A stretch of DNA of 64,000 nt from Alphaproteobacteria bacterium (GTDB lineage: Bacteria > Pseudomonadota > Alphaproteobacteria > JAUHZY01), in assembly GCA_030425825.1 (NCBI GenBank), contig JAUHZY010000001.1:1026834-1090833 (forward strand). The letters run 5' to 3'. Below the pieces are notes generated by a model. It was not told where the DNA came from. It ran no database searches and worked only from the letters and a program-made list of their open reading frames with translations. This document shows, piece by piece, positions 25,505 through 28,420 of this stretch. The position numbers and the translations under genes were made by a program. Within the stretch, counting starts at the first letter, position 1; every line of letters begins with the position of its first letter.

Positions 25505-26518
25505 TTAGAAAGCATATTGCCACCCCAACATAAAACGCATATCCGTTTCAAGTTGTGGACCATCAAGGTCTTGATAAATTGGCATACCAACTTCCAAGGC
25601 AAGACGTTGGCTCTTCATTGCACCTTCTGGCGCAATAAAGTTAAGGCCGACAAGAGCATCTATGCGTTCACCGCCACGCAGATCTGTTCGCGCAGTTGGT
25701 GTCATCATAGGGTTTAAGTCTGCATCAGCCCCTTCAATGTCTGACCATTTTTTCCCATCAAGTCTTGCTGAAATACTAACAGTGTTATTCAACTTCTTTG
25801 CACCCCAAGCCGTCATGTTATACTCATGGCCTAAACGATAATTTTCATCATTCTCACCTGTGCGAAATGTTGCAGCAGCTTGACCACCCCATGACCAATC
25901 ATTCAAATGGCGAACATATGTGATGCCTAAAATAGGATCATAAGTTCCAGAGCCCAGCTGCATGGGGTACGGCAACTTCTGATTTGCAACCATTGGAGTA
26001 TCATCGCGTTCATTTGTTGATCCTGTTGGTAAGCTTAGGCCCAAATTTAAGTGGACTTTTTCACTATCCCTAACAGGTTTTGAAGAAGCCACCTTATCGT
26101 AAAGCTTATAAAGTGCTGTAAGCTTTAGGTCACCAAAACCAGAGGATGATGTTTTAAATCTTGCACCTATGCGATTAACAATTGTCATGTCTTTCTCAAT
26201 ATACGGAATCATCGCCATGACTGTTACGTCATCACTATAACCATACATTGCACCAAACATATGCATGTCCATTGTCATTTTTTCTGGTGCCATCATAAAC
26301 TGACTCAAAACGTCAGATGTCGGAACACTGTCTGTGCCGCGGCGGTTCCCCTTCATATTCATAGCCCCATAACGGTAGGATAACATCCATTCTCCTTCGT
26401 TATGCCTGTGATCACCCATTACACCCAAAGGCGCATGGCTATCAGGAAGAGGAATGCTATCTGCAAATGCAGGTGCGCTGAGGCACAAAAATGCCATAGA
26501 TAAAATAAGTTTTTTCAT
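25505..26518 (-). CDS. Outer-membrane transporter-like protein (phenol MetA-pathway family)
   Basis: Exported protein of 337 residues with a clear signal peptide (cleavage after APAFA, about residue 19). The mature part alternates short beta strands and ends in an aromatic residue (GWQYAF), as outer-membrane barrels do. The start of the mature protein, PLGVMGDHRHNEGEWMLSYR, and Met-rich stretches (MMAPEKMTMDMHMFGAM) fit a group of alpha-type outer-membrane proteins usually annotated with the MetA-pathway family. In my recollection that group often lies near copper-related genes. Neighbours here are DUF2946, a nitroreductase and a His-rich peptide. The substrate is unknown; Met and His richness suggests a role with metals, which is inference. 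Confidence 0.65.
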   Translation of the reverse strand: MKKLILSMAFLCLSAPAFADSIPLPDSHAPLGVMGDHRHNEGEWMLSYRYGAMNMKGNRRGTDSVPTSDVLSQFMMAPEKMTMDMHMFGAMYGYSDDVTVMAMIPYIEKDMTIVNRIGARFKTSSSGFGDLKLTALYKLYDKVASSKPVRDSEKVHLNLGLSLPTGSTNERDDTPMVANQKLPYPMQLGSGTYDPILGITYVRHLNDWSWGGQAAATFRTGENDENYRLGHEYNMTAWGAKKLNNTVSISARLDGKKWSDIEGADADLNPMMTPTARTDLRGGERIDALVGLNFIAPEGAMKSQRLALEVGMPIYQDLDGPQLETDMRFMLGWQYAF

Positions 26519-26546
26519 TTTTTTCTCCTATAAAAAAAACTTTTGC

Positions 26547-26586: not shown

Positions 26587-26934
26587 TTAGGAGAAAAAAG
26601 GGGGCGCACGTGGTGGCTTGATTGTGTCCTTACGATAGACGAAATGCTCTCCAAGCAAATAAAAGCTGAAAGAGAAGAGCAATAAAACAAAAGTTATTGC
26701 GACTTCGGCGCTTGGTGAAATATCTGGCTTGTAAGTTGAACCAATAAAACATAAAGGACAATGTGGCCCTTCTTGCTTGTTACTTTGTTCATGCTGGGCA
26801 GCGCCATGATGCTGATGCGCAAATTCGTCTAATGTTGGTGGAGAATACTGAGCGCCTTGTGTAAACAAAACAGGCGCAAGGCTTTGCAGTAAAAAGGCAA
26901 TCAGAATAAATGAAAAAGAAAGTTGTCTTAGCAT
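26587..26934 (-). CDS. DUF2946-type membrane protein with HCPLC motif
   Basis: Small membrane protein of 115 residues. It has an N-terminal helix (about 4-24), a His-rich extracytoplasmic stretch (FAHQHHGAAQHEQ), the motif HCPLC near residue 67, a second helix, and a C-terminal PPRAPP segment. This layout matches the DUF2946 family, whose HCxxC-like motif and frequent location beside copper genes suggest metal handling; no function is established. The reading frame is open far upstream in nitroreductase sequence, but the ATG at 26934 with GAGAAAG before it gives the family N-terminus. It lies seven bases after the nitroreductase stop. Confidence 0.75.
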   Translation of the reverse strand: MLRQLSFSFILIAFLLQSLAPVLFTQGAQYSPPTLDEFAHQHHGAAQHEQSNKQEGPHCPLCFIGSTYKPDISPSAEVAITFVLLLFSFSFYLLGEHFVYRKDTIKPPRAPPFFS

Positions 26935-26941
26935 GCTTTCT

Positions 26942-27544
26942 CTAGAACTTGTCTTGAATGACCATTTGGTTATAAGGCAAAATGTTGAGTTTTGGATGTG
27001 GCTCTGCAGAACGCTTACCAACAGCAACAAACATTGAAATAAGATGATCTTTTGGTAAGTTGATAAGCTGACCAACTGCATCGAAGTCAAACCCATCCAT
27101 TGGACATGTGTCATATCCCATACCTTGCGCTGCAAGCATCAATGTCTGCGCAGCCATGCCACAAGATCTTAACGCTTCGTCACGTTGCACTTGTGGTTTT
27201 CCATCATAATATCCCTTAATCGCAGGCAAAAGAAAATCTTGTGCTTGCTGACCTGATGCTGCCCAATACCTAAAAGGCTCTTTCTTCCAGGCTTTCATAT
27301 CTGCACACACCACAACAAGAAGAGAGCTGTCCGTGACCTGCGCTTGCCCCCATGAAACTGCGCGAATCTTTTCACGTAAAGACGCGTCTTGGACCAAAAC
27401 AAAACGACAATGTTGAATATTAAAAGCTGAAGGCGCTAAGCGCACAAGCGACATAAGCTCTTCAATTTCTGAAGACTCTATTTGGTGGCTTGAGTCAAAC
27501 TGCTTAATTGCACGACGGTTTTTTATTGCATCAGAAATTTTCAT
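26942..27544 (-). CDS. Nitroreductase family protein
   Basis: FMN-dependent NAD(P)H oxidoreductase of the NfsB type, 200 residues, cytoplasmic. The N-terminal NRRAIKQFDSSHQ provides the phosphate-contacting Arg, followed by LVRLAPSAFNIQHCRFVLVQD. The C-terminal half has GMGYDTCPMDGFDFDAVG and ISMFVAVGKR. Length is typical for a homodimeric flavoprotein. Physiological substrate cannot be inferred. It is first of three minus-strand genes leading into DUF2946 and the outer-membrane protein; the upstream His-rich gene ends in a terminator, so it probably has a separate promoter. Confidence 0.9.
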   Translation of the reverse strand: MKISDAIKNRRAIKQFDSSHQIESSEIEELMSLVRLAPSAFNIQHCRFVLVQDASLREKIRAVSWGQAQVTDSSLLVVVCADMKAWKKEPFRYWAASGQQAQDFLLPAIKGYYDGKPQVQRDEALRSCGMAAQTLMLAAQGMGYDTCPMDGFDFDAVGQLINLPKDHLISMFVAVGKRSAEPHPKLNILPYNQMVIQDKF

Positions 27545-27604
27545 GATTTATTCCTCATTAATAATAATGAAGCTACCTTATAAACTACCCAACAAAAAGC
27601 CAAC

Positions 27605-27633
27605 AAAAAAAGGCGCCAGAAACAACTGGCACC
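27605..27633 (-). terminator. Intrinsic terminator of the His-rich peptide gene
   Basis: On the minus strand GGTGCCAG and CTGGCGCC form an eight-pair stem (one G-U) with a six-base loop, directly followed by seven T residues at 27611-27605. It starts 27 bases after the stop at 27660, so it closes the small His-rich gene and separates it from the nitroreductase. Confidence 0.85.
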
Positions 27634-27659
27634 TCCCTTTATTTATCGTCACAACATTC

Positions 27660-27797
27660 CTAATGGTGACCATCGCACTCTTCATGATGTTCTTCAGCAT
27701 AATGAGGATCATCACAATGATTCTCAGCCGATGCCAGAACATCTGAAATGGTAAAAAAACTCACTGCGAAGAGGATTATAAATAGATATTACTTCAT
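27660..27797 (-). pseudogene. Small His-rich exported peptide, stop at codon 3
   Basis: The frame reads Met-Lys-stop-Tyr and then a complete exported peptide: a hydrophobic segment YLFIILFAVSFFTISDVLA acting as signal peptide, and a mature part with AENHCDDPHYAEEHHEECDG ending in His-His. The mature 22 residues hold six His, two Cys and many acids, a likely metal-binding tail. GGAG precedes the ATG at the right distance and a strong terminator follows, so the locus is built like a real gene. TAA at 27791-27789 is one base from AAA (Lys), which would give a normal MKK signal start. It is a recent nonsense mutation or a sequence error; a GTG 11 codons in could start only a weak remnant. Confidence 0.7.
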
Positions 27798-27817
27798 GTT
27801 CTTAATCTCCAAAAATA

Positions 27818-27833
27818 AGGGTTGAAAAACCCT
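27818..27833. promoter_or_regulatory. Hairpin with U tract just before the His-rich peptide gene
   Basis: AGGGTT-GAAA-AACCCT is a perfect six-base stem with a tetraloop. On the minus strand it is followed by TATTTTT and then at once by the GGAG of the His-rich gene. It therefore looks like an intrinsic terminator placed in the leader (attenuator), 21 bases upstream of the ATG. Confidence 0.5.
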
Positions 27834-27892
27834 AACCAATGTACTTCAATTAACATCTACTTGCTAAATTTGTAAACATTTTGAGACAACCT

Positions 27893-28420
27893 ATGGGACA
27901 TACATTAACACAATATTCAACTGATGGTTTTTGGCATCAGTTTAACGATAAAAAAATCTACCACTCTCATCACCGGATTGAGGGAATTGGGAAAGTTTCT
28001 CTTCTATTTTCTAATGATGATGAACTATTGTGTGTATTCCACAAAGGACGTATTTCTAAACCGTTAAAAAACGTTAATACAGAACAAAACCAAGCGAAAG
28101 GTGAGACGTTATTCACGAAGCTAATTAATAATGAGGACCTTAAATTGGTTACCATTGGAACAAATTTTCAAAACAGCGTTTGGAAAGAGCTTTTAAAGAT
28201 TCCAAACGGTTCAACCGTTACATATCATGATATTGCAAAAAGAATAAAGCGGCCCAAAGCATATAGGGCTGTCGCAAATGCCGTCGGTGCAAACCCTATT
28301 TCTGTGACAATTCCTTGTCATCGTGTTTTACGAACAGGTGGCGGCATTGGTGGGTTCGGCTGGGGACTTCCCGCGAAAAGAGTTCTTCTAAAGCGTGAAG
28401 GCATCACCATTCAAGAATAA
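27893..28420 (+). CDS. ogt: Methylated-DNA--protein-cysteine methyltransferase
   Basis: Suicide repair enzyme that removes alkyl groups from O6-methylguanine, 175 residues. The C-terminal domain has [20 protein letters not shown], the helix-turn-helix with the Arg finger in [13 protein letters not shown], and the active site IPCHRVL with Cys142. The N-terminal 80 residues are a shortened accessory domain. An in-frame TTG at 27881 is possible; I use the ATG at 27893. Its 3' end overlaps the convergent tdh by 17 bases. No AraC-type Ada domain is present, so it is an Ogt-type protein. Confidence 0.93.

What the first reader, a model, noticed from the sequence alone, without database searches (positions are those of the whole stretch)
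27660..27797. His-rich exported peptide gene with an in-frame ochre codon at position 3
The gene has a ribosome-binding site, signal peptide, compact His/Cys/acid-rich tail and terminator, yet codon 3 is TAA where AAA (Lys) would give a normal MKK start. It is a very young loss-of-function mutation, a sequence error, or something deliberate such as readthrough or re-initiation. TAA is an ordinary stop elsewhere in the window. A metal-binding exported peptide of about 40 residues beside a DUF2946 protein is itself poorly described.
Basis: partly seen in the sequence, partly recalled or inferred. Interest (0 to 1): 0.6.

Follow-up and report, generated by a model that had tools for sequence, protein, structure and literature searches.

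The report
Disabled gene for His-rich exported peptide
A tiny gene for a secreted, metal-binding-looking peptide is interrupted by a stop codon at its third codon, and perhaps by a second one near its end, so it is most likely a recently inactivated gene rather than a new kind of translation trick; the copper-sensor gene next to it looks like a clear example of a known switch.

Summary
On the minus strand, 27797-27660 reads MK*YLFIILFAVSFFTISDVLASA|ENHCDDPHYAEEHHEECDGHH*, with GGAG 9 nt upstream and a strong terminator downstream. The tail (16 of 21 residues H/C/D/E, six His) is unique in 1.2 Mb of real DNA read in six frames and is not approached in 30 simulated windows, so the frame is, or recently was, coding. 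TAA ends 43 of the 54 longest frames in the window, and no typed tRNA gene in the genome reads UAA or UAG. Downstream restart would lose the signal peptide. A second nonsense mutation is therefore likely.

Best explanation: a recently inactivated, lineage-specific gene for an exported metal-binding peptide. A base error in the assembly is the main rival. Readthrough or regulation is unlikely but not excluded. No relative was found, and no other genome of this order is held, so conservation could not be tested.

The nearby DUF2946 gene is not "poorly described": it meets the CruR/CutF sequence criteria (CPLC-46 residues-RAPP), and its last codons pair with the downstream outer-membrane gene's Shine-Dalgarno sequence.

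The parts
27660..27797 (-). disrupted gene for a His/Cys/acid-rich exported peptide (MK*...DGHH*)
27789..27791 (-). in-frame TAA at codon 3
27807..27810 (-). GGAG, Shine-Dalgarno-like, 9 nt before the ATG
   Evidence: by eye
27726..27797 (-). signal-peptide-like region, read through the TAA (MK-x-YLFIILFAVSFFTISDVLASA)
   Evidence: by eye; no predictor run
27663..27725 (-). mature tail ENHCDDPHYAEEHHEECDGHH, 16 of 21 residues H/C/D/E
27639..27659 (-). in-frame continuation after the TAG: ECCDDK then TAA; likely former C-terminus
   Evidence: 1 of 1,015 TAG triplets in the window
27602..27643 (-). intrinsic terminator, 18-pair stem, loop of 6
27818..27833 (-). small hairpin followed by a T-rich run in the 5' leader; role unknown, possibly chance
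26942..27544 (-). nitroreductase-family gene
   Evidence: PF00881 E 8.2e-33
26587..26934 (-). DUF2946 protein, CruR/CutF-like (CPLC, 46 residues, RAPP)
25505..26518 (-). outer-membrane protein (Phenol_MetA_deg family), presumed target of the DUF2946 switch
26588..26599 (-). anti-Shine-Dalgarno arm inside the last codons of the DUF2946 gene
26519..26530 (-). Shine-Dalgarno arm of the outer-membrane gene (TAGGAGAAAAAA), paired with 26588-26599

Best explanation
This is a small, lineage-specific gene for a Sec-exported peptide whose His/Cys/acidic tail would bind metal ions in the periplasm. It has been inactivated recently by a nonsense substitution at codon 3. A second nonsense change (TAG at codon 46), which cuts off an original ECCDDK end, is likely too. 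Ribosomes that start at the ATG would make only Met-Lys and release, so no exported peptide is made. Shown: the frame, the stops, the tail's extreme composition, the terminator, the ordinary use of TAA and the lack of a typed suppressor tRNA. Inferred: export, metal binding, former function, and that the loss is recent.
For: The tail composition is far outside chance, so the frame was probably selected until recently. TAA and TAG are ordinary stops in this genome. None of the ARAGORN-typed tRNAs of the genome has a UUA or CUA anticodon. The ECCDDK continuation after TAG occurs once in 1,015 TAG triplets and ends in TAA at the foot of the terminator stem, which suggests two disabling changes. 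There is no other copy in the genome.
Against: Apart from the stops, the gene is intact (Shine-Dalgarno sequence, signal-like region, tail, terminator), which needs either a very recent loss or a base error. The ECCDDK argument was made after seeing it. No relative was found, so neither the ancestral state nor past selection can be shown directly.
Confidence: 0.6

Rival explanations
1. The TAA is a base error in the assembly, or one allele of a mixed population, and the gene is intact with TAG as its true stop.
For: Everything else about the gene is intact. The genome is in 11 contigs and is the only one held of its order, so the base is not confirmed independently. One base change is enough.
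Against: Single-base errors in finished contigs are rare (general knowledge). The likely second in-frame stop followed by ECCDDK is not explained by one error.
Confidence: 0.25
2. The TAA is functional: it is read through at low level, or the MK* start-stop and the His-rich frame act as a metal-responsive leader in front of the terminator and the nitroreductase-DUF2946-outer-membrane genes.
For: The frame is preserved after the stop. A strong terminator begins 16 nt after the TAG, upstream of genes that include a CruR/CutF-like leader gene.
Against: No suppressor tRNA was found. The predicted fold shows the terminator forming on its own, with no competing antiterminator. The peptide has no Pro-rich stalling motif. 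There is no Rfam match and no conservation evidence.
Confidence: 0.08
3. Translation restarts downstream of the TAA and makes a shortened, cytoplasmic His-rich peptide.
For: An in-frame GTG at 27764 gives a 34-residue frame.
Against: It has no Shine-Dalgarno sequence and loses most of the hydrophobic stretch, so the product would not be exported.
Confidence: 0.04
4. The frame is chance and never coded.
For: No relative was found in about 780 sampled genomes of the class and phylum, or in plasmids, phages or viral contigs.
Against: The tail composition is unique in 1.21 Mb in six frames and never approached in simulations, and it sits behind a start, a Shine-Dalgarno sequence and a signal-like stretch and before a terminator.
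Confidence: 0.03

Closest known systems
CutF/CruR-type copper-responsive upstream ORFs (DUF2946, PF11162)
   Same: Short exported metal-binding peptide gene near copper-linked genes; a true DUF2946 member lies two genes downstream.
   Different: The His-rich peptide has no CXXC/CXXXC motif, no RAPP or other Pro-rich C-terminus and no DUF2946 match, and is separated from the next gene by a terminator.
Small His-rich exported metal-binding peptides in general
   Same: Signal-like N-terminus and a His/Cys/Asp/Glu tail.
   Different: No sequence relative was found; Pfam and NCBIfam give no significant match.
Nonsense-inactivated bacterial pseudogenes
   Same: In-frame stop early in an otherwise recognisable gene; probably a second stop near the end.
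   Different: Very short gene with all expression signals still in place; no intact orthologue is known to prove the loss.

Membership tests
Nonsense pseudogene | in-frame stop in a frame that was coding | tested here: met
   TAA at codon 3; tail composition far outside chance
Nonsense pseudogene | stop is not recoded in this organism | tested here: met
   TAA ends 43 of 54 long frames; no UUA or CUA anticodon tRNA among those typed
Nonsense pseudogene | intact orthologue in relatives | tested here: inconclusive
   no relative found; no other genome of the same order held
CutF/CruR-like leader gene (for the His-rich peptide) | Pro-rich C-terminal stalling motif | tested here: not met
   only one Pro in the tail; ends DGHH or ECCDDK
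CutF/CruR-like leader gene (for the His-rich peptide) | DUF2946 profile match | tested here: not met
   no Pfam match to PF11162 at E up to 10; the genome has a single DUF2946 match, at 26587-26934
CruR/CutF (for the DUF2946 protein 26587-26934) | CXXC and RAPP motifs at conserved spacing of about 45 | tested here: met
   CPLC, 46 residues, RAPP; compare PMC9426467
CruR/CutF (for the DUF2946 protein 26587-26934) | stem-loop that hides the Shine-Dalgarno sequence of the next gene (CutF type) | tested here: met
   predicted 12-pair stem, z -3.24; Shine-Dalgarno paired with probability 1.00 against mean 0.19 for control segments
CruR/CutF (for the DUF2946 protein 26587-26934) | copper response of the downstream gene | not testable with these tools
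   needs an experiment
Programmed readthrough | suppressor tRNA or conserved stop plus downstream frame in relatives | tested here: inconclusive
   no suppressor tRNA; no relatives to test the second part

The most novel reading that the evidence does not exclude
The stop at codon 3 is kept on purpose: a start-stop (MK*) with rare readthrough or stop-coupled regulation of a metal-binding exported peptide that sits in front of a terminator and of genes that include a CruR/CutF-like leader gene.
Probability: 0.04. Interest if true: 0.75.

Novelty: new member of a known kind. Interest (0 to 1): 0.2.

Why it matters
If the gene is a fresh loss of function, it is an ordinary event. Its use is as a caution that short, real genes can be missed or misread because of one base, and as a pointer to a metal-homeostasis neighbourhood whose DUF2946 gene carries a clear CutF-like switch: the codons just after the stalling motif form the strand predicted to hide the next gene's ribosome-binding site.

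Tried and rejected
Recoding of TAA: rejected, because TAA is the main stop in the window and no suppressor tRNA was found; the 35th tRNA match (L124) was not typed by ARAGORN and looks by eye like a 3' tRNA fragment. Frameshifting around the stop: rejected, because neither other frame gives a signal peptide followed by an open tail. Downstream restart at GTG 27764: unlikely. Chance frame: rejected by composition tests. Relatives of the peptide: searched in its own genome, in 385 sampled genomes of the class by protein and by degenerate DNA pattern, in 398 of the phylum, and in plasmids, phages and viral contigs. The best foreign hit (L134, E 0.001) is a differently built charged exported protein and is taken as a compositional match. 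The genome-contig scan with the nitroreductase returned 80 loci; none has a comparable peptide. Attenuator reading: no competing structure in the predicted fold.

Full report
Observation. The minus strand at 27797-27660 reads MK*YLFIILFAVSFFTISDVLASAENHCDDPHYAEEHHEECDGHH*. GGAG lies 9 nt before the ATG. A strong intrinsic terminator lies at 27643-27602 (-25 kcal/mol, z -7.9, none of 200 shuffles as stable). The signal peptide was judged by eye, since no predictor was available.

Is it more than chance? The 21-residue tail has 16 H/C/D/E residues, six of them His. In 30 first-order Markov copies of the window, the best 21-residue stretch in any frame has 9 to 12. The frame is or was coding.

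The stops. TAA ends 43, TAG 7 and TGA 4 of the 54 open frames of at least 150 codons in the window (a few of these frames are shadows of genes, which does not change the picture). The genome has 35 tRNA matches. ARAGORN typed 34 of them, and none has a UUA or CUA anticodon. The last, at L124, looks by eye like a 3' tRNA fragment. So no recoding is indicated.

A second stop. After the TAG the frame runs GAA TGT TGT GAC GAT AAA TAA, that is ECCDDK*, with the TAA at the foot of the terminator stem. Of 1,015 TAG triplets in the window on both strands, only this one is followed by six open codons with at least five of H/C/D/E. The test was thought of after seeing the sequence, so it is suggestive, not proof. 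It points to an original peptide of 52 residues with two nonsense changes, which a single base error would not explain.

Relatives. The genome is the only one held of its family and order; its purH protein is at most 65% identical to the best of the class sample. The peptide was not found in 385 genomes of the class or 398 of the phylum, by degenerate DNA pattern in the class, or in plasmids, phages and viral contigs. The best foreign hit (E 0.001, L134) is a longer protein of different build. Pfam and NCBIfam give nothing significant.

Mechanism. Most likely (0.6) this is a recently inactivated gene for an exported metal-binding peptide: ribosomes release after Met-Lys. A base error or minority allele comes next (0.25). 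Regulated readthrough or a leader function (0.08) lacks a suppressor tRNA, a Pro-rich stalling motif and a competing RNA structure. Restart at GTG 27764 (0.04) would lose the signal peptide.

Surroundings. The order on the minus strand is: peptide, terminator, nitroreductase (PF00881), DUF2946 protein, outer-membrane protein (PF13557). A methylguanine-DNA-methyltransferase-like gene is divergent on the plus strand (27881-28420). DUF2946 proteins are no longer undescribed. CruR of Bordetella senses copper through CXXC and stalls at RAPP (PMC9426467). CutF of Rhodobacter controls a stem-loop that hides the Shine-Dalgarno sequence of the next gene (PMC9973294).

The DUF2946 protein here has CPLC and RAPP 46 residues apart, within the published spacing. 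The codons just after RAPP (TTTTTTCTCCTA, 26599-26588) pair over 12 bases with TAGGAGAAAAAA (26530-26519), the Shine-Dalgarno region of the outer-membrane gene (z -3.24). In 13 DUF2946 cassettes tested (this one and 12 of other genomes of the class), the mean probability that the next gene's Shine-Dalgarno sequence pairs with the end of the DUF2946 gene is 0.80, against 0.27 for 36-base segments taken upstream. The next gene was chosen by a simple rule, and loci without a clear one were left out. A stalled ribosome at RAPP would cover this strand and free the site. This fits the published CutF model and is a new member of a known kind; copper response was not tested.

The His-rich peptide itself is not a CutF/CruR member: it has no Pro-rich C-terminus and no DUF2946 match. 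A functional link to the cassette is possible because both look metal-related, but it is not shown.

Noticed in passing
window 26587-26934 and 26519-26530: CruR/CutF-like DUF2946 gene whose last codons (after RAPP) form a predicted 12-pair stem with the Shine-Dalgarno region of the downstream outer-membrane gene; similar pairing recurs in most of 12 other DUF2946 cassettes of the class (mean 0.80 with the window's own included, against 0.27 for controls).
   Followed up: partly
L175 and L180: Relatives of the outer-membrane protein (52% and 39% identity) lie in the same loci as DUF2946 genes in other genomes of the class, so the pair recurs.
   Followed up: partly
window 26942-27544: The nitroreductase's best matches in genome contigs (55-63% identity) are mostly Methylophilaceae and other distant groups, which may point to horizontal transfer; no tree was built.
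   Followed up: no
L124 (own genome, C2:340020-340083): A 3' tRNA fragment without a recognisable 5' half, perhaps a remnant of an integration event.
   Followed up: no
window 27818-27833: Small hairpin followed by a T-rich run just before the Shine-Dalgarno sequence of the peptide gene; could be a weak leader element or chance.
   Followed up: no
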